The translations under genes and the position numbers were made by a program. Positions 2,544 through 29,564 of a stretch of DNA of 47,646 bases are shown piece by piece; positions within the stretch are counted from its first letter, which is position 1, and every line of letters begins with the position of its first letter. The notes under the pieces were generated by a model. The model searched no databases, was not told where the DNA came from, and worked only from the letters and a program-made list of their open reading frames with translations. The DNA comes from Chthonomonadaceae bacterium (GTDB lineage: Bacteria > Armatimonadota > Chthonomonadetes > Chthonomonadales > Chthonomonadaceae): positions 1 through 47,646 of the forward strand of contig DAIDHN010000030.1 of NCBI GenBank assembly GCA_027459665.1, given 5' to 3'.

Positions 2544-3137
2544 ATGCACGGAAAAGCGACTGGCGCTCTCTATTCCGTGGGGCATTCAAACCATTCGCTG
2601 CAATGGTTTCTGCATTTGCTGAAGCAGGCAGAAATAGAAGAGGTGTGGGATGTGCGCTCGAAGCCCGTCTCACTTTACACACCGCACTTCAATTCTGCCT
2701 GCCTGGGCAAAAGCCTGCCCGCAGAGCAGGTGGCCTACTGCAGCATGGGGCATGCGCTGGGAGGCAGACCAGCGGAACTGCAGTTTTACGATGCTCAAGG
2801 CTATGTACGCTACGACCTGCTGGCGCAAACACCCCTGTTTCTGCAGGCAGTGCAGCTACTGCAGCAAAATTCATGCCAAAGTCGCATTGCACTGCTTTGC
2901 AGCGAGGAAAACCCGCTGATTTGCCACAGAACCCTTCTTATTGGCAGGGTGATGCAGCAAAAAGGAATGCATTTACTGCACATTCGCGGGGATGGAAGAG
3001 TGCAGACCGATGAGGAACTGCAGGCGGAAAACCCTCAGCTCAGCCTCTTCAGAGAAGAGGAAGGGGAAGGCGCAGCATGGAAGTCTTTACAATCGGCTTT
3101 ACCCGCAAAAACGCGGAAACATTCTTCGAAAAACTAA
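2544..3137 (+). CDS. DUF488 family protein (first copy)
   Basis: A 197-residue DUF488 protein. The family marks are the opening SVGHSNHSLQWFLHLL, the WDVRSKP segment and the C-terminal LLCSEENPLICHRTLL, in which Cys, Glu and the CHR triad are conserved. The DUF488 fold is related to rhodanese-like and phosphatase-like proteins; its biochemical activity is not firmly known. The last ~20 codons overlap the next gene, also DUF488, by 61 bases in another frame, so the two are probably translationally coupled. The charged tail (REEEGEGAAWKSLQ and beyond) lies outside the domain. The ATG at 2544 follows a purine-rich AGAAGG. The gene sits between the gltB part and gltD, which is not a usual partner. 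Confidence 0.8.
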   Translation: MHGKATGALYSVGHSNHSLQWFLHLLKQAEIEEVWDVRSKPVSLYTPHFNSACLGKSLPAEQVAYCSMGHALGGRPAELQFYDAQGYVRYDLLAQTPLFLQAVQLLQQNSCQSRIALLCSEENPLICHRTLLIGRVMQQKGMHLLHIRGDGRVQTDEELQAENPQLSLFREEEGEGAAWKSLQSALPAKTRKHSSKN

Positions 3138-3514
3138 AAGAAGCCCGTATACAGCGCCTGCTGGATGTTCGCCTGCATCCCGCATCGCAGCTGTCGGCGT
3201 TTGCAAAATCGGAGGACCTCGCCTATTTTCTGCGTGAGCTTTGCCAGATAGAATACCGGCACGCGCCGCCGCTTGCCCCCACCCAGGAGCTGCTCGACAG
3301 CTATCGCAGGCAGAAAACCGGATGGGAAAACTACCGCACCGGTTTTCTTGAACTGATGCTGCAAAGAAAAGTGGAACACTATTATCCGCACCAATTTTTT
3401 GAGCCGCGCACAGTTCTGCTCTGCAGCGAAAATTCGCACCAGCAGTGCCATCGCAGCCTTGTGCTTGAATACCTGCTGCAACAGGGCTATCCGCTGCAGG
3501 TAAGCCATTTGTAG
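3077..3514 (+). CDS. DUF488 family protein (second copy)
   Basis: A compact 145-residue DUF488 protein. It opens with VFTIGFTRKNAETFFEKL, has LLDVRLHP at the position of the WDVR segment, and ends with the signature VLLCSENSHQQCHRSLV. It is shorter than the upstream copy and clearly diverged from it, so the pair is an old duplication or two different subfamilies. It starts inside the end of the first DUF488 gene, after AGAGGAAGGGGAAGG, a strong purine-rich ribosome site. It is followed after 11 bases by the dual-OB gene, so the three look like one functional cassette. Confidence 0.8.
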   Translation: MEVFTIGFTRKNAETFFEKLKEARIQRLLDVRLHPASQLSAFAKSEDLAYFLRELCQIEYRHAPPLAPTQELLDSYRRQKTGWENYRTGFLELMLQRKVEHYYPHQFFEPRTVLLCSENSHQQCHRSLVLEYLLQQGYPLQVSHL

Positions 3515-20162: not shown

Positions 20163-21350
20163 ATGACCAGCAACACGCTCATCGGCAGCAGCCTGAAAGC
20201 TACCTGCCCCAGAAAAGACCTTTTTGCAGCGGTGCAGGTAGTAGGCCGTGCAGTGAGCGGGCGCAGCACCCTGCCCATTCTCAGCCACATACTGCTCCGT
20301 ACCGAGCCAGAGAGCATCCGCCTCATCGCCACCGATCTCGAGCTGGGCATATCGTGCCGTGTTGCTGCGGCCATCAAAGAAGAAGGCAGCCTCACGGCGC
20401 CGGCACGCACCCTGGGCGATGCGCTGGGCACTCTGCCAGACCGAAGCGATGTAGACCTTTCGGCCGACCGCAGTTTTACCACCCATGTGCGCTGCGAGCG
20501 CTCTACCTACAAAATTCTCGGTCTGCCCGCCGAAGATTACCCGCAGCTGCCCGAAGTACCTGAAACAGTCTGCTTTAAAATTCCCCAAAAGCGCCTGCGC
20601 GACCTGATTCGGCAAACGCAGTTTGCGGTTTCTTCTGATGAAGCGCGCGCCACTCTTACCGGCATTTACATGGAATTTGACGGCAGCTGCATACGCTTTG
20701 TGGCCACCGATACGCACCGGCTGGCAACCAGAATAGATGCAGTAAGCGAGGGAACCGGCTCGCTGAATGTCATTGTGCCCGCGCGCGCCATGAACGAACT
20801 CAACCACCTGCTTTCCGATGCAGAGGGCGAGGTCAAGGTGGTGCTGGCTTCCAACCAGATAGCCTTTCACCTGCCCGGTGAAGATGAAATACAAATTGTC
20901 TCACGCATCATAGAGGGCCACTTTCCCAATTACAAGCGCGTCATTCCCGAAAGCTACACCAGGCGCATCACCGTGTCTACCTCAGCACTGCTTTCGGCTG
21001 TGCGCAGGGCATTTGTCGTTGCCAAAGACGTTTCCAGCGCTTCACGCGTTGTGCTGCGCACATCAGATGCCGGCAGCCTGATTCTTACCGCAGAAAACCA
21101 GACGGTGGGCAGCGCCTACGAAGAGGTGGAGGCGCGATGCGAGGGCGAGACTGTAGAAGTCGCCTTCAATGCGAAGTACCTGATGGATGTGCTGGTGGCG
21201 CTGGAAGAAGAGAGCGTCTATCTGGAAATAACAGAGCCGCTCCGCCCTGCGGTGCTGCGCCCGGTGCCGCCACCGCCCGCCGCAGACCAGGAAGCGCCGG
21301 CAGGCACCGCCGAGCAGCTCTGCGTGCTTATGCCCATGCAGGTGGTGTAA
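20163..21350 (+). CDS. dnaN: DNA polymerase III beta subunit (sliding clamp)
   Basis: DnaN forms the ring clamp that tethers the replicative polymerase. All three clamp domains are visible: LKATCPRKDLFAAVQVVGRA with TLPILSHILL; then FKIPQKRLRDLIRQTQFAVS with FVATDTHRLATR; and VSRIIEGHFPNYKRVIP with VAFNAKYLMDVL. The C-terminal strand normally ends in MPM plus two residues; here CVLMPMQVV is preceded by an inserted Pro/Ala-rich segment (PPPPAADQEAPAGTAEQ), making the protein 395 residues. The ATG at 20163 follows AATGGAGAATC. dnaA is not beside it. The frame is intact, unlike the restriction genes that follow. Confidence 0.96.
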   Translation: MTSNTLIGSSLKATCPRKDLFAAVQVVGRAVSGRSTLPILSHILLRTEPESIRLIATDLELGISCRVAAAIKEEGSLTAPARTLGDALGTLPDRSDVDLSADRSFTTHVRCERSTYKILGLPAEDYPQLPEVPETVCFKIPQKRLRDLIRQTQFAVSSDEARATLTGIYMEFDGSCIRFVATDTHRLATRIDAVSEGTGSLNVIVPARAMNELNHLLSDAEGEVKVVLASNQIAFHLPGEDEIQIVSRIIEGHFPNYKRVIPESYTRRITVSTSALLSAVRRAFVVAKDVSSASRVVLRTSDAGSLILTAENQTVGSAYEEVEARCEGETVEVAFNAKYLMDVLVALEEESVYLEITEPLRPAVLRPVPPPPAADQEAPAGTAEQLCVLMPMQVV

Positions 21351-21521: not shown

Positions 21522-22363
21522 ATGATGCTTCACCAGGACCGAAAACACAAATTTGAAACATCCCTCCGCGAGTTTGTCGAGCGCTTAACAATGTATACGG
21601 CCGCGGACAACGGATACTGGAGCGTTAAAGGGATCATCGACGTATACCAAAACGTCTATGCAATCTCATCAGACACAAAGATCGTTTCCAAAATTCTCGA
21701 GACACATATTTTTCCTGAGATACTCAAATTTTCCGAAGCAAACGGCTACAGACTCGTTCTGCCAAACCATCAAAACTATTATCCAGACTTTCTTTCATAG
21801 CTTATGACAATGAAACCGTCCGCTTTGCGCTAGACTTTAAGACCACTTACCGCAAGCCTGAAAAACCTGATTACTGCAACGGCTTCACTCTTGGCTCACA
21901 CGGCGAGTACTTTGTTAAACGTGACAGCACAAAAAATATCCAGTTCCCTTACAGCACCTATTCGGGTCATTATTGTCTGGGCATTATTTACAGCCGTGTA
22001 TCTGATCGCTCAGTTGATGAAACCACCGTCTACAGTTTAGACCAGCTGCAATCCATTGTTTCAGTTGTGAAAGATTTTCAATTCTTTGTTCAGGAGAAAT
22101 GGAAGATAGCAAGCGATCGAAGCGGCAGCGGCAACACAGCCAACATCGGAAGCATCAACCATATCCCCAGTATCATAGCCGGGCGCGGAATGTTTGCCGA
22201 TCTTGGAGAAGCTGTGTTCGATGAGTACTGGATGAACTATGGCCAAATCAAGGTTGTCGATCCTGTCACAGGCAGCGTGAAGGCTGTCACGAAACTGGAG
22301 GCATTTCTCAGGCACAAAGGGCTGGATCATACCGTCGCTCAACAAACCACACGCACAAGGTAA
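21522..22363 (+). pseudogene. EcoRV-like type II restriction endonuclease, frameshifted
   Basis: Both halves match R.EcoRV, which cuts GATATC. The first frame (21522-21800, 92 residues) contains SSDTKIVSKILE and QNYYPDF with the first catalytic Asp. The frame then stops. Homology resumes one frame back: ALDFKTTYRK holds the second Asp and the Lys, then FTLGSHGEYFVKR, TKNIQFPYS, and the recognition-loop motif SGSGNTANIGSI, ending at 22363. Adding one T to the TTT at 21789-21791 restores a single frame, and the spacing between the two catalytic Asp codons then equals that of EcoRV (16 residues). It is thus a one-base deletion in a T run. Catalytic residues are all retained. The cognate methylase follows at 22379. 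Confidence 0.9.
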
Positions 22364-22378
22364 AACACTACTCAAACC

Positions 22379-23381
22379 ATGAAAGTAATCATTCCTCCAA
22401 TCAAATGCCAGGGCATCAAAACCAGGCTCGTAAGTCTGATATCAGATATGGCGAGATGGGATAATCGAGGCATCTGGATAGAGCCGTTTCTTGGCTCTGG
22501 GGTTGTGGGCTTCAACCTGGCGCGGCGGCGAGCATTGTTTGCCGATACCAACCCTCACACCATCGCTTTTTATAAAGCCCTGCAAGACCAAAAGATTACC
22601 CCAGCCATTATAAAAGATTTTTTGCAAACCGAAGGGACCACGTTATCCCGCGTTGGAGAAGCCCACTACTACGCCATACGGGAACGATTCAACAGAGAGG
22701 CTGCTCCTTTGGACTTTCTCTTTCTTAACCGCGCCTGCTTCAATGGGGTTATGCGTTTCAATCGCAAAGGGGGATTCAATGTTCCATGCTGCCGTAAACC
22801 CGATCGTTTCGCCCAGGCATATATAACTAAAATAGTTAATCAGGCGACAGCTGTATACGAACACATTCACTGTTCACAGTGGGAATTCAAGGTGCAGCAA
22901 TTCACCGAAACAATTGCAACGTCAACCCCAAACGATTTCATCTACGCCGATCCGCCCTATGTTGGCCGCCATTTGAATTACTTTGAAAGCTGGGACGAGA
23001 TAAAAGAAGCAAAGCTGTTTCAATCTCTGAGCCAAGGCAAGGCGAGATTCATTCTTTCCACCTGGGAAGAAAACACATATCGTCGTAACTCGTTCATTGA
23101 TGGGTTATGGGGCTGTTTCCCACGAGTCTCGCAACAGCACTTTTATCATGTTGGGGCACCTTAATGCCATGACCGAAGCCCTCGTCATGAATTTCACTCC
23201 TCCAAACAGAACTCACCAAACAGAACAGCATCCGCAGGCGGCATTACCGCTCTATGACCGCCCCGTGCAAGAAAATGATCAACACAATCTCATACAACAT
23301 CGCATTCCTCAAGCAGCGCCTCTGAAATGGGGCAGCACGGACAGCGATGCCAATAAAGGACTGCGAACATGCCGTGGCTAA
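22379..23381 (+). pseudogene. EcoRV-type adenine methyltransferase, C-terminal frameshift
   Basis: A Dam-family N6-adenine methyltransferase close to M.EcoRV. The N-terminus VIIPPIKCQGIKTRLV, SAM-binding motif EPFLGSGVVGFNLA, the LDFLFLNRACFNGVMRFN segment, FAQAYITKI, catalytic DPPY in FIYADPPYVGRH, and FILSTWEENTYR are all visible. The frame stops at 23164 after HFYHVGAP. The expected C-terminal continuation (NAMTEALVMNF) is found in the next frame from about 23160 to 23381. The core with all catalytic motifs (261 residues) is uninterrupted, so activity may survive. It would protect GATATC from the upstream endonuclease. It starts 15 bases after that gene. Confidence 0.85.
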
Positions 23382-23417: not shown

Positions 23418-24427
23418 ATGGCTTCGGAAAGGGTGCAACAAAAACAGAGAGCAGGCCGAAACAGGACGTTGACGCTGAGCGAAGAAGATGCGCAGAACTG
23501 CGGTGCAAAACTCTGCAGGATAAGCAGGCCCGCAAGTATCGCAGATATAGAAAACAAGACTATCAATCAGGATTTGCTTGATGTTCTCGAATGGCTGCCC
23601 GCCGGGTGTGCCCGATCTCCTGTTCATTGACCCTCCCTACAATCTGAGCAAGCAATACAACTCAGGTAAATTCAAAAGGAAGCCATTCGACGAGTATGTC
23701 GAGTGGATCGAGTGCTGGCTCCCCCGGCTGCTGAACACGCTCACGCCAAATGGTTCTGCTTATATTTGCGCTGATTGGGAGTCATCTACCGCCGTCCACA
23801 TGGTTGCATCCAGGTACCTGAAGATCAGAAGCCGCATCACCTGGGAACGCGAGAAGGGAAGAGGCGCGAAAGCCAACTGGAAGAATTGCTCTGAAGACAT
23901 TTGGTACTGCACAAAATCAGACGACTTCACTTTCAACCTCGACGCAGTGAAAATCAAGCGTCGTGTCATAGCGCCATATAGGGACGGTGACGGAAAACCG
24001 AAGGATTGGGATGAGGGCGAAGAGGGGGGGTGCGGTTGACGCATCCATCCAAAATCTGGACGGACATTACTGTTCCGTTCTGGTCCATGTCGGAAAACAC
24101 AGACCATCCGACACAAAGCCGGAAAAGCTCGTCGCGAAGGCGATTCTCGCCAGTTCCAACCCAGGCGATCTGGTGCTTGATCCCTTCCTTGGGTCAGGAA
24201 CCACGTCGGTCTTCGCGAAGAAGCTGGGCAGACGGTATGTCGGGATCGAATGCGATGAGACCTATTGCTGCCTTGCTGAGAAGCGCCTCGCTCTGGCTGA
24301 TCAGGACCGTAGCATTCAGGGATATTCTGAAGGCGTATTCTGGGAAAGGAACAGCCTGCAGGGCGTGAGAGATACCTCCCGTAAGTTTGGAGTACCAACC
24401 CTGTTCGCAGAGGATAATGATGAGTAG
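23418..24427 (+). pseudogene. Beta-class DNA methyltransferase, three frameshifts
   Basis: A DNA N6-adenine/N4-cytosine methyltransferase (PF01555 type) with the beta-class order: catalytic DPPY first, SAM motif last. The frames join as 23418 to ~23605 (TINQDLLDVLEWLPAG), ~23605 to ~24025 (VPDLLFIDPPYNLSKQYN, GSAYICADW, WKNCSEDIWYCTK), ~24030 to ~24117 (LTHPSKIWTDITVPFWSM, ENTDHPTQ), and ~24117 to 24427 (KPEKLVAKAILAS, DPFLGSGTTSVFAKKLG, GVFWERNSL). The shifts fall in short runs: an extra G at GGG near 23603, the G7 run at 24024-24030, and a missing A at AAA 24115-24117. DPPY suggests adenine as target. The start has AAGGAG upstream. Specificity unknown. Confidence 0.85.
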
Positions 24428-25085
24428 AAGCCCACTGTTCTACGGTGACGATCATAAGAGGATCGAGGCTTCCATTGTTGAGACGCTTAATACCCAGCCT
24501 GAATTTCTTTCCGCCAGGTCGCTTGGCAGCCCGCGCGCGGTGGGAGATGCTGAGCAGGAAATGCTCGGCGAGCACTCTAAATCTATTATGGGGGATGTCT
24601 GCAAAGCATATTCCGATACGTTCTCCCGCCGTACTATGGCAGACCTGGCATTCTATGACACGTCCGACTTTTATTATGTCGTGGATGTCAAAACTCACAA
24701 TCTCGGCACGCAATTCAATATGCCGAATCTCCATCCGTGGAAAGACTGGCACGCTTTTACGAAGATGACAAGAATTGCTTCACGCTCCTCATAGTGAAAT
24801 ATGAAGTGGGTGAGGCGGACATTTCCTTCAAAGAGGCGCATTTCGTGCCTATAGAGTTTCTGTCATGGGAATGCCTGACGATTGGGGCGCAGGGCTGGGG
24901 CCAGATATAAATATCCAATGCTAACGTCATCAAGATAAATGAACGCTATTCCAGGAAGAAGTGGATGCTCGAGCTGTGCGATACCATGGCACGATTCTAT
25001 CCAGGGGGAAATTGAGAAGATAGGCAAGCGTATCGCCTATTTCGAGCACGTAAGGCAGCAATGGGAGGCGAAGCCAGATGCCTGA
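24417..25085 (+). pseudogene. PD-(D/E)XK restriction endonuclease remnant
   Basis: Overlaps the end of the methyltransferase by 11 bases, the usual layout of a methylase/endonuclease pair. The first frame contains MADLAFYD and YYVVDVKTHN, a PD-(D/E)XK active site (Asp, then D-V-K), and TQFNMPNL. It shifts frame near 24730 to SVERLARFYEDD and LLIVKYEVGEADISF. A TAA at 24908-24910 interrupts GWGQI and ISNANVIKINERYS in the same frame, probably a CAA to TAA change. A further shift in the G5 run at 25004-25008 leads to EIEKIGKRIAYFEHVRQQW, ending at 25085. The active-site layout resembles the HincII group; that likeness is tentative. It is certainly inactive as it stands. Confidence 0.8.
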
Positions 25086-25107
25086 ACCAGCGCTCTGCTC
25101 ACTGGTT

Positions 25108-25320
25108 CACCTCACCCCCTCAACCATGCAGCCGCTGCCTGGTGGTTAACCTCACCCCCTTGACCTTCGGTCATTCCCCCTCTCCCGGACAGTCGCTGCG
25201 CTCCTTGAGAGAGGGGGAGCAGAACCATGTCGCCAGCCTGCACCAGTCCTCTGCCGCCCCTCTTTCAGCGCCAACAGGCGCGACCGGGAGAGAGGCTGGC
25301 TGTTAGGCCGGGGTGAGGTT
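25108..25320. repeat. Foldback repeat element (MITE/REP-like)
   Basis: Outer inverted ends AACCTCACCCC (25148-25158) and GGGGTGAGGTT (25310-25320) enclose nested inverted repeats: GACC/GGTC (25162-25172), CCCCCTCTC/GAGAGGGGG (25176-25217) and GCCAGCCT/AGGCTGGC (25232-25300). A second partial copy of the left end (CACCTCACCCCCT) lies 40 bases further left, at 25109-25121. There is no coding sequence. The layout is that of a small non-autonomous foldback element or REP-type palindrome. It sits directly downstream of the decayed restriction genes. Confidence 0.6.
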
Positions 25321-25376
25321 GCCTCACACGCTCTGCCGCAGTTGGCATGCAGAGCAGCATGGTGCATAGTGTATTT

Positions 25377-25447
25377 AGTCCACGGCAGTGGACTTTTGCC
25401 TGTCAAAACGGGGTTAAACCCGTGGTATGCGCAGGGGTTGAAACCCA
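25377..25447. repeat. Short palindrome cluster
   Basis: AGTCCAC/GTGGACT with a 4-base loop and a T-run (25377-25397) could terminate plus-strand transcription. It is followed by two GGGTT-type imperfect palindromes around 25409-25424 and 25433-25446. Such stacked short hairpins are typical of dispersed intergenic repeats. No gene is seen from 25086 to the methyltransferase start. Confidence 0.5.
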
Positions 25448-25585
25448 GTGGCCATGTGCGCTGTTGTGAAATGGCCCGCTGCAATACCGCAGGTTTCATT
25501 GCGGCTGTTCAGGTGGTATAACAAAAGCGTGCTGCCGAATGCTGCGGCGGAAGCAGACAACAAGGCAACAGGAAAAACAACACAG

Positions 25586-26830
25586 GTGAGCAGTACAACA
25601 CCGCTGCGCTGGCTTGCAGCATCAGAGGGAAGAGAATGGCTGGAGAGGGCTGCCAGCCTGCCTGCCGACCAGCTTGCCCGGCTGCAAACGCTGCGCCCGC
25701 TGGTGGGGCCAGAGCGGGCCGCCGCCCTGGTAGAGCAGCTGCAGCTGCGAAAACAGGCGGCAGAGCGTTTTCCGCAGGCAGGCAAAATGCTATTCACCCG
25801 CGCCGGGCTGGAGCAGTCTACCGCGCCTGCTGTCGCGCAGTGGAGGGCTTCCCTGTTTCCCGAAAACGAATGCTGCCTCGACCTTTGCTGTGGAATAGGC
25901 GGCGACCTCATCCCCCTGGCGCAGCGCATGCCGATTCTGGCAGCAGACAGCGATTCAGACGCGCTTTTCTGTGCGCGTCACAACCTGTCGCTTTTTGCCT
26001 CAAAACATGAAACACGCTTTCTGCAGGCCGATGTAACTACTCTTTCACTGCCTGCACTGCGCAGCACAGGCTTTCGCACCCTTTTTTGCGACCCTGCCAG
26101 GCGCACCATGCAGCAGGGCGGCATGGTGCGCACCAGATCGCTGGGAGAAAGCAGCCCGCCGCTGCACTGGATGCAAACCCTGCGGCATGCCCTCGATTTT
26201 GCAGCGCTTAAACTCTCGCCTGCCGTACCGCGCCACGAGCTGGAACTGCTGGGAGGGCACACATACTTTGTTTCGTACGGCAGGGTATGCAGAGAAGCAT
26301 GCTGCCTGCTGCACCTGCCGCACGGCCCTGCAGGAGCGGTTTTGCTGCAGCAGGATGCAACAGCAGATACCATGCATGCGCTGCCAGGAGAGAGCGCACA
26401 GGCATCGCCCGCCATGCAGTGGCTTGTAGAGCCAGATCCCGCCCTCATTCGCGCCGGCCTCACCGATGCTTTCGCTGTGCGCACAGGCTGCATGCGCCTG
26501 GCCCACGGGCTGGACTATCTTACCGCGCACAGCCGTTTTGAAACCCCATGGGCCGATTTTTACCGCATACTAGATGCCATGCCCTATCACCCCGCAAAAG
26601 TAAAACAGTGGCTGCAGGCCCGCAATGCAAGGGTGACTGTGGTGAAACAGCGTGGCACAGACCTGCAGCCTGAACAGGTAAGACGGCAGCTGCAAACAAA
26701 AAAAACAGCAGACGGCGTGCCACTCACCCTGGTGCTGGCGCGCATTGGCCGTTCTTTCAACGCCATACTGTGTGAGCCGCTTCACCGTACTGCAGCTGCT
26801 GAGCAGGAACAGCAGGAGACCGCCTGGTAA
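25586..26830 (+). CDS. Class I SAM-dependent methyltransferase with THUMP-like C-terminus
   Basis: A ~414-residue methyltransferase. The SAM-binding motif I is CLDLCCGIGGDLIPLA, followed by ILAADSDSDAL. The catalytic-side motif is LFCDPARR, the signature of a family found in Bacteroidetes and Actinobacteria and annotated as THUMP-like. The C-terminal part MPYHPAKVKQWLQARNARVT with VVKQRGTDLQPEQVRRQL matches the THUMP-like domain, suggesting an RNA target; the substrate is not known. The frame is open to 25448, but those residues show no homology and contain a TATAAC -10-like box. GTG at 25586 puts the N-terminus at the conserved part; the ribosome site is weak, so the start is uncertain. Confidence 0.82.
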   Translation: MSSTTPLRWLAASEGREWLERAASLPADQLARLQTLRPLVGPERAAALVEQLQLRKQAAERFPQAGKMLFTRAGLEQSTAPAVAQWRASLFPENECCLDLCCGIGGDLIPLAQRMPILAADSDSDALFCARHNLSLFASKHETRFLQADVTTLSLPALRSTGFRTLFCDPARRTMQQGGMVRTRSLGESSPPLHWMQTLRHALDFAALKLSPAVPRHELELLGGHTYFVSYGRVCREACCLLHLPHGPAGAVLLQQDATADTMHALPGESAQASPAMQWLVEPDPALIRAGLTDAFAVRTGCMRLAHGLDYLTAHSRFETPWADFYRILDAMPYHPAKVKQWLQARNARVTVVKQRGTDLQPEQVRRQLQTKKTADGVPLTLVLARIGRSFNAILCEPLHRTAAAEQEQQETAW

Positions 26831-28589: not shown

Positions 28590-29564
28590 CTACCCTTGCG
28601 GGCCGCCGGGGCCGCCGCCAGGCCCGCCAAACCCAGGGCCGCCGGGAGGCATTCCGCCAGGTCCACCAGGCCCACCGGGGCCACCGAAACCGGGGCCGCC
28701 AGGACCACGCCCGCCAGGCCCGCCAAACCCAGGGCCACCAGGTCCGCCAGGGCCGGGTCTGCCGCCGGGAGCGTGGCTTGAGACGAACTGAAGCAAAATA
28801 CGCAGCTGGTCTGCATTCAGCAAACCGTCTACCTTTTGCGTCAGCGTTTTATGCTCCTCGCGCATTGCAGCCATGGCTGCAAAACGGTCGCCCTGCGAAA
28901 ACGCTTTCTCCATGCTGCTGCGGGTCTGCTTGTGCACTGCATCTGCCGCAGACTGAATAGACTTCAGCTGCCCGTCGCTCAGCTTCAGTTTTCCCATCAG
29001 TTCAATAGGCAGCTGCGCCTCTGCCCACACCTGCACCCGGCTGAGAAGCGCCGGTGCCTGTGCGCGCTGGCTGCTGGTGAGTACTGCCTCAATTTCGCTG
29101 CTTGCCTTTTTACGCGCTGCAGCAAACCCTCTCCCCCCAAACCCGCCGCCGGGAGGCATTCCGCCGGGGCCGCCGAAACCAGGACCACCGGGACCACCGG
29201 GTCCGCCGCCGGGACCACCGGGGCCGCCAGGACCACCGGGGCCGCCAAATCCACGGCCGCCGAAACCAGGGCCGCCAGGACCACCGGGTCCGCCAAATCC
29301 ACGGCCGCCAGGACCACCGGGGCCGCCGGGCATGTTGTTGCGCAGAATGTGCATTACCTGCTGAAACTGAGCATTGGTAAGCGAGAGTTTTGTTTTGAGA
29401 ACAAAGGGGGGCACATCAGCCAGCATCGGCTTGCGCAGAAGCATGCCCATCATTCGGCCGCCGGGAGGAGGCGGGGGCATGTTCTGCTGAGCATTGGCAG
29501 AGGTTTGCCAAAGTGGTATAACGCAAAGAGCCAGAGCGGCAGCGCCAGATACAATTGGTTTCAT
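28590..29564 (-). CDS. Secreted LTXXQ-type protein with collagen-like Gly/Pro blocks
   Basis: A 324-residue exported protein: signal peptide (AAALALCVIPLWQTSANA), then Pro-rich PPPPPGGRMMGMLL, an LTXXQ-like helix (LKTKLSLTNAQFQQVMHIL), a long Gly-Pro-Phe-Arg block of GPGG and GFGG units (29130-29340), a helical core (LKLSDGQLKSIQSAADAVHK, FAAMAAMREEHKTLTQKVDG), and a second Gly/Pro block up to the C-terminus (28590-28760). The helical parts resemble Spy/CpxP periplasmic chaperones. The Gly-Pro blocks are low-complexity and not strict Gly-X-Y collagen. The ATG at 29564 follows AAAGGAA. Function unknown; a surface or cell-envelope role is plausible. Confidence 0.75.
   Translation of the reverse strand: MKPIVSGAAALALCVIPLWQTSANAQQNMPPPPPGGRMMGMLLRKPMLADVPPFVLKTKLSLTNAQFQQVMHILRNNMPGGPGGPGGRGFGGPGGPGGPGFGGRGFGGPGGPGGPGGPGGGPGGPGGPGFGGPGGMPPGGGFGGRGFAAARKKASSEIEAVLTSSQRAQAPALLSRVQVWAEAQLPIELMGKLKLSDGQLKSIQSAADAVHKQTRSSMEKAFSQGDRFAAMAAMREEHKTLTQKVDGLLNADQLRILLQFVSSHAPGGRPGPGGPGGPGFGGPGGRGPGGPGFGGPGGPGGPGGMPPGGPGFGGPGGGPGGPQG

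What the first reader, a model, noticed from the sequence alone, without database searches (positions are those of the whole stretch)
21522..22363. EcoRV homologue one base away from an intact gene
Both halves of an EcoRV-type endonuclease are present with all catalytic residues and the recognition loop. Adding one T to the TTT at 21789-21791 rebuilds a full frame with exactly the EcoRV spacing between the catalytic Asp residues. GATATC sites do occur in the window (for example 8605 and 37049), so the genome would depend on the methylase if the enzyme were active.
Basis: partly seen in the sequence, partly recalled or inferred. Interest (0 to 1): 0.6.

Follow-up and report, generated by a model that had tools for sequence, protein, structure and literature searches.

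The report
Broken EcoRV-type restriction gene, decaying island
The window holds a recognisable relative of the DNA-cutting enzyme EcoRV that is split by a one-base frameshift, but its partner methylase and a second neighbouring restriction-modification pair are broken too, so this is most likely an ordinary decaying defence island rather than a gene spoiled by one stray sequencing error.

Summary
Two adjacent frames (21522-21800 and 21719-22363) match Pfam Endonuc-EcoRV end to end, in contiguous register across a break near 21789, with both catalytic Asp residues, the Lys and the recognition loop. In 76 of 80 homologous loci the gene is one open frame, always beside the same Dam-type methylase. 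The reading 'one base from an intact gene, perhaps a sequencing error' is too narrow. The 4.1 kb between dnaN and the next gene is a foreign insertion; in two relatives those two genes adjoin. It carries two restriction-modification pairs and all four genes are broken: EcoRV-type R (one frameshift), its methylase (one, removing a conserved C-terminus), a beta-class methylase (three) and a second PD-(D/E)xK endonuclease (two frameshifts plus a nonsense codon). I found no comparable lesion in the other 43.5 kb. This clustering points to real decay, though no reads are held. GATATC is twofold rarer than expected in this genome but not in three relatives lacking the gene: weak evidence that the system once worked. 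Ordinary; low interest.

The parts
20163..21350 (+). dnaN (DNA polymerase III beta clamp), intact; left flank of the inserted island
   Evidence: Three Pfam beta-clamp domains full length; 50-62% identity to relatives
21522..21800 (+). EcoRV-type endonuclease, N-terminal part (first catalytic Asp), ends at a premature TAG
   Evidence: PF09233 positions 3-66; EcoRV PDB chains E 6e-9
21719..22363 (+). EcoRV-type endonuclease, C-terminal part in another frame (homology from about 21789; second catalytic Asp, Lys, recognition loop); no ATG/GTG/TTG in this frame before 22067
   Evidence: PF09233 positions 72-243, E 7.9e-78; start codon scan
22379..23164 (+). M.EcoRV-like Dam-family (D12) adenine methylase; frame lost at about 23158, removing a C-terminal block conserved in relatives
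   Evidence: PF02086 E 1.8e-34; TIGR00571 dam over cut-off; relatives continue beyond the break
23433..24424 (+). second, beta-class (N6_N4) DNA methylase in four frame segments; breaks near 23600, 24024 and 24116
   Evidence: tblastn of 17 open relatives; PF01555
24429..25073 (+). second restriction endonuclease remnant (PD-(D/E)xK type, VVDVKTH motif), three frame segments and one in-frame TAA
   Evidence: tblastn with the intact homologue of L132:3792-4481, 45-67% identity
25143..25447 (+). non-coding dispersed repeat with dozens of partial matches in this genome, at the right edge of the island
   Evidence: 47 matches in own genome for 25080-25447
25448..26830 (+). THUMP-like-domain methyltransferase, intact; right flank; directly follows dnaN in two relatives
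   Evidence: Pfam; adjacency in L119 and L121

Best explanation
A horizontally acquired island carrying two Type II restriction-modification systems inserted between dnaN and a THUMP-domain methyltransferase gene and is now decaying. The EcoRV-type endonuclease was lost through a one-base frameshift between its first catalytic Asp and its second catalytic Asp and Lys: the 92-residue product lacks D90, K92 and the recognition loop and cannot cut DNA. With no cutter left to protect against, the partner methylase lost its C-terminus. The second pair has decayed further. Shown: the homology, the lesions and the insertion. Inferred: that the lesions are real rather than sequencing errors, the order of loss, the inactivity, and the target GATATC.
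For: Both halves match one family in contiguous register. 76 of 80 homologous genome loci have the gene in one open frame, all 80 beside the same methylase, and the sister-genus genomes G001 and G003 have open copies. All four island genes carry lesions: R 1, M1 1, M2 3, R2 3, one of them a nonsense codon. The rest of the contig shows full-length core genes and only ordinary gene overlaps. The island is absent between dnaN and the THUMP gene in G009 and G012. Base composition (43-45% G+C in R against 55.5% for the window) and codon usage of the EcoRV-type gene are foreign. Four homologues elsewhere are broken independently: frameshifts in L053, L046 and L083, a nonsense codon in L070. The N-terminal part departs from family-conserved columns at 4 of 23 places, a number reached by 1 of 79 relatives. 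GATATC is 48 observed against 93 expected in 448 kb of this genome, but 135/154, 75/64 and 67/62 in relatives G007, G005, G009 without the gene.
Against: No reads are available. Most of the indels lie in or beside short runs of one base, where some sequencing platforms fail. The C-terminal part of the endonuclease keeps nearly all conserved residues, so its loss, if real, is recent. GATATC ranks only 14th among depleted 6-base palindromes in this genome, so its depletion need not be due to this enzyme.
Confidence: 0.85

Rival explanations
1. The frameshift, and the neighbouring ones, are sequencing or assembly errors (for example low coverage of the island), and one or both restriction-modification systems are intact.
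For: Most indels lie in or beside short base runs. There are precedents: two frameshifts annotated in a Methanocaldococcus jannaschii methylase gene (MjaVIP system) were sequencing errors (PMC3488263).
Against: Eight lesions within 3.6 kb and none found in 43.5 kb outside. One lesion is a nonsense codon in R2 where the homologue has Gln, and one R2 indel is not in a base run. The assembly is 99.86% complete with 0.04% contamination.
Confidence: 0.12
2. Only the endonuclease is dead; the Dam-family methylase still works as an orphan methylase that marks GATATC. This is a variant of the best explanation rather than its opposite.
For: Its catalytic domain, including the FLGSG and DPPY motifs, is intact and over the Dam family cut-off; of 91 strongly conserved columns it lacks only the 5 beyond the break and departs at 2 others.
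Against: 76 of 79 relatives have the C-terminal motif that is missing here, as a rule with some 30-40 residues from it to the end. The second pair shows general decay of the island.
Confidence: 0.25
3. The two halves are joined by programmed frameshifting, or work as a split enzyme.
For: The two frames overlap from 21719 to 21800.
Against: Nearly all relatives encode the protein in one frame. I saw no canonical slippery heptamer in the overlap (sequence, read by eye). Frame B has no ATG/GTG/TTG start before 22067, downstream of the catalytic residues.
Confidence: 0.02

Closest known systems
EcoRV restriction-modification system (R.EcoRV, PF09233; M.EcoRV, Dam family)
   Same: Sequence family, catalytic residues D74/D90/K92, recognition loop, Dam-family methylase as direct neighbour
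   Different: R is frameshifted and the methylase truncated; about 40% identity to EcoRV over the C-terminal part; T187 replaced by Ala, as in the nearest relatives
EcoRV-like clade of chromosomal R-M pairs in Methylomonas, Chromatium, Chloroflexi, Poribacteria and others (L006-L085)
   Same: 53-66% identical R followed by the same D12 methylase in the same orientation
   Different: Intact in nearly all; here both genes are broken and a second R-M pair lies beside them
Corrupted R-M genes in general (REBASE, as discussed in PMC4687349 and PMC3488263)
   Same: Frameshifts and premature stops in R and M genes of systems gained and lost by horizontal transfer
   Different: Nothing beyond the particular families involved

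Membership tests
EcoRV-type restriction endonuclease (PF09233) | Profile match over the family cut-off along the whole length | tested here: met
   Positions 3-66 at 93.4 bits and 72-243 at 261.7 bits, cut-off 25, in two frames
EcoRV-type restriction endonuclease (PF09233) | Catalytic D74, D90, K92 and recognition loop | tested here: met
   Alignments to PDB EcoRV chains and to 79 relatives
EcoRV-type restriction endonuclease (PF09233) | One open reading frame able to encode the enzyme | tested here: not met
   Frameshift with TAG at 21798-21800; a member by descent, a pseudogene in its present state
EcoRV-type restriction endonuclease (PF09233) | Cleavage of GATATC | not testable with these tools
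   Site depletion 48/93 is indirect only
M.EcoRV-like Dam-family methylase | D12 class profile with FLGSG and DPPY motifs, gene next to R | tested here: met
   PF02086, TIGR00571; same pairing in all relatives
M.EcoRV-like Dam-family methylase | Conserved C-terminal motif | tested here: not met
   Lost by a frame change near 23158; present in 76 of 79 relatives

The most novel reading that the evidence does not exclude
An R-M island caught in mid-extinction: the EcoRV-type cutter died recently, the truncated methylase may still mark GATATC, and the genome still bears the site depletion left by a formerly active enzyme.
Probability: 0.2. Interest if true: 0.3.

Novelty: new member of a known kind. 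Interest (0 to 1): 0.18.

Why it matters
It corrects a tempting single-gene reading: judging a frameshift needs the neighbouring genes. It adds a clear case of two R-M systems found together at the dnaN locus and decaying together, with the uninterrupted gene order seen in relatives. It does not change any general understanding of restriction-modification systems.

Tried and rejected
Programmed frameshifting or a split enzyme: rejected because nearly all relatives use one frame and frame B lacks a usable start. A possible second frameshift in the contig at 28754: rejected, since a relative matches that reading frame to residue 347 of 351, so the neighbouring frame is an ordinary overlap. The 3078 junction: two overlapping DUF488 genes, each with its own domain. 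The second endonuclease had no match in Pfam, NCBIfam, PDB sequences or plasmids, so its site is unknown. Phage and plasmid records gave only EcoRV homologues of at most 57% identity. No clear target-site duplication was found at the island edges.

Full report
Observation. The window is a whole 47,646-base contig (C30) of a 3.67 Mb draft genome in 118 contigs, 99.86% complete. Between 21522 and 22363 two overlapping frames encode the two parts of an EcoRV-type endonuclease. Frame A (21522-21800, 92 aa) matches PF09233 positions 3-66; frame B (open 21719-22363) matches positions 72-243. The residues around the break fill positions 67-71, so only a one-base change of frame separates the halves. 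EcoRV itself is matched by both halves in the PDB, with D74 in frame A, and D90, K92 and the loop GSGNTANIGS in frame B. EcoRV has GSGNTTNIGS; the relatives shown also have Ala there. The spacing of 16 residues between the two Asp holds in the relatives.

Relatives. The same family occurs in two sister-genus genomes and in 80 loci of many phyla at 53-66% identity. In all of these the endonuclease lies beside a D12 methylase. Four of the 80 genome-contig loci (L053, L046, L083 and L070) carry their own frameshift or stop. L053 happens to be broken just after the same NYYPD motif. Loss of the endonuclease has thus happened several times independently, if those sequences are right.

Neighbours. 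tblastn with the relatives' proteins ends the first half at 21788 in each of the 25 relatives printed. The methylase (22379-23164, Dam family by TIGR00571) stops aligning at 23155-23158, whereas relatives go on through a conserved motif (typically NRNPMxEA) that 76 of 79 carry, as a rule with 30-40 residues from it to the end. The matching residues (LNAMTEALVMNF) lie in another frame. A second, beta-class methylase follows in four segments, with frame changes near 23600, 24024 and 24116 shown by 17 open relatives from viral contigs. Downstream of it, 24429-25073 is a remnant of a second endonuclease. An intact homologue lies next to the beta-class methylase in L132 (3792-4481). Against it the window has two frame changes and an in-frame TAA where L132 has Gln. 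In other viral contigs the same type of methylase lies beside other genes, so that pairing is not fixed.

Is it an insertion, and is it foreign? In G009 and G012 the dnaN gene adjoins the THUMP-domain gene that lies at 25448 in the window. The 4.1 kb between them is therefore extra here. A coding model trained on the contig's other genes does not recognise the EcoRV-type gene as host-like, and its G+C content is 43-45% against 55.5% for the window. The right edge is a dispersed non-coding repeat with dozens of matches in the genome.

Error or decay? Outside the island the genes with Pfam matches are full length or nearly so (glutamate synthase from the contig edge, TsaD, DeoC-type aldolase, FliM, FliN, FliP, DnaN, RNase J, a DHDPS-family protein, a semialdehyde dehydrogenase, chorismate synthase, dehydroquinate synthase, RibD, TilS, FtsH). 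A codon model finds only frame switches that are ordinary gene overlaps (28754 checked). If eight lesions fell at random on the contig, all falling within 3.6 kb would have a chance of the order of 1e-9 (my arithmetic, (3.6/47.6)^8). Locally poor assembly could also cluster errors, and precedents of false frameshifts in R-M genes exist (PMC3488263). A nonsense codon and an indel outside base runs speak against that. I take real decay as far more likely, without proof from reads.

Mechanism. The product of frame A lacks D90, K92 and the recognition loop, so by established EcoRV biochemistry (my own knowledge) it cannot cleave. No ATG, GTG or TTG start exists in frame B before 22067, which is after the catalytic residues. 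The likely course is loss of the cutter first, since a cell that loses the methylase first would be cut, and then loss of the methylase (inference). GATATC is at half its expected number in a 448 kb sample of this genome (48/93) and also low in G003, which has an open copy (9/32, small sample), but near expectation in G007, G005 and G009, which lack the gene. This fits the published link between residence time of R-M systems and site avoidance (PMC4687349), but many palindromes are depleted here, so it is weak.

Verdict. An EcoRV-family pseudogene in a decaying island of two R-M systems.

Noticed in passing
own genome sample L140-L159 plus window (448 kb): GRGCYC is extremely rare: GGGCCC 1/65, GAGCTC 3/37, GAGCCC 5/64, GGGCTC 7/77 observed/expected, 16 against 245 in all. 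In relative G007 GGGCCC and GAGCTC, the two forms checked there, are far less depleted. This suggests a long-resident active R-M system of BanII/HgiJII-like specificity in this lineage.
   Followed up: partly
window 25143-25447: Dispersed non-coding repeat with dozens of partial matches across the genome (up to 89% identity over 184 bases), some close to contig ends.
   Followed up: partly
window 2544-3514: Two tandem, overlapping DUF488 genes (2544-3137 and 3077-3514).
   Followed up: no
L053 (Candidatus Achromatium palustre), just upstream of 5001: An EcoRV homologue broken by an independent frameshift just after the same NYYPD motif as in the window.
   Followed up: no
window 24429-25073 and L132:3792-4481: A PD-(D/E)xK-like endonuclease family (VVDxKTH motif) beside a beta-class methylase, without a match in Pfam, NCBIfam, PDB sequences or plasmid records.
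   Followed up: partly
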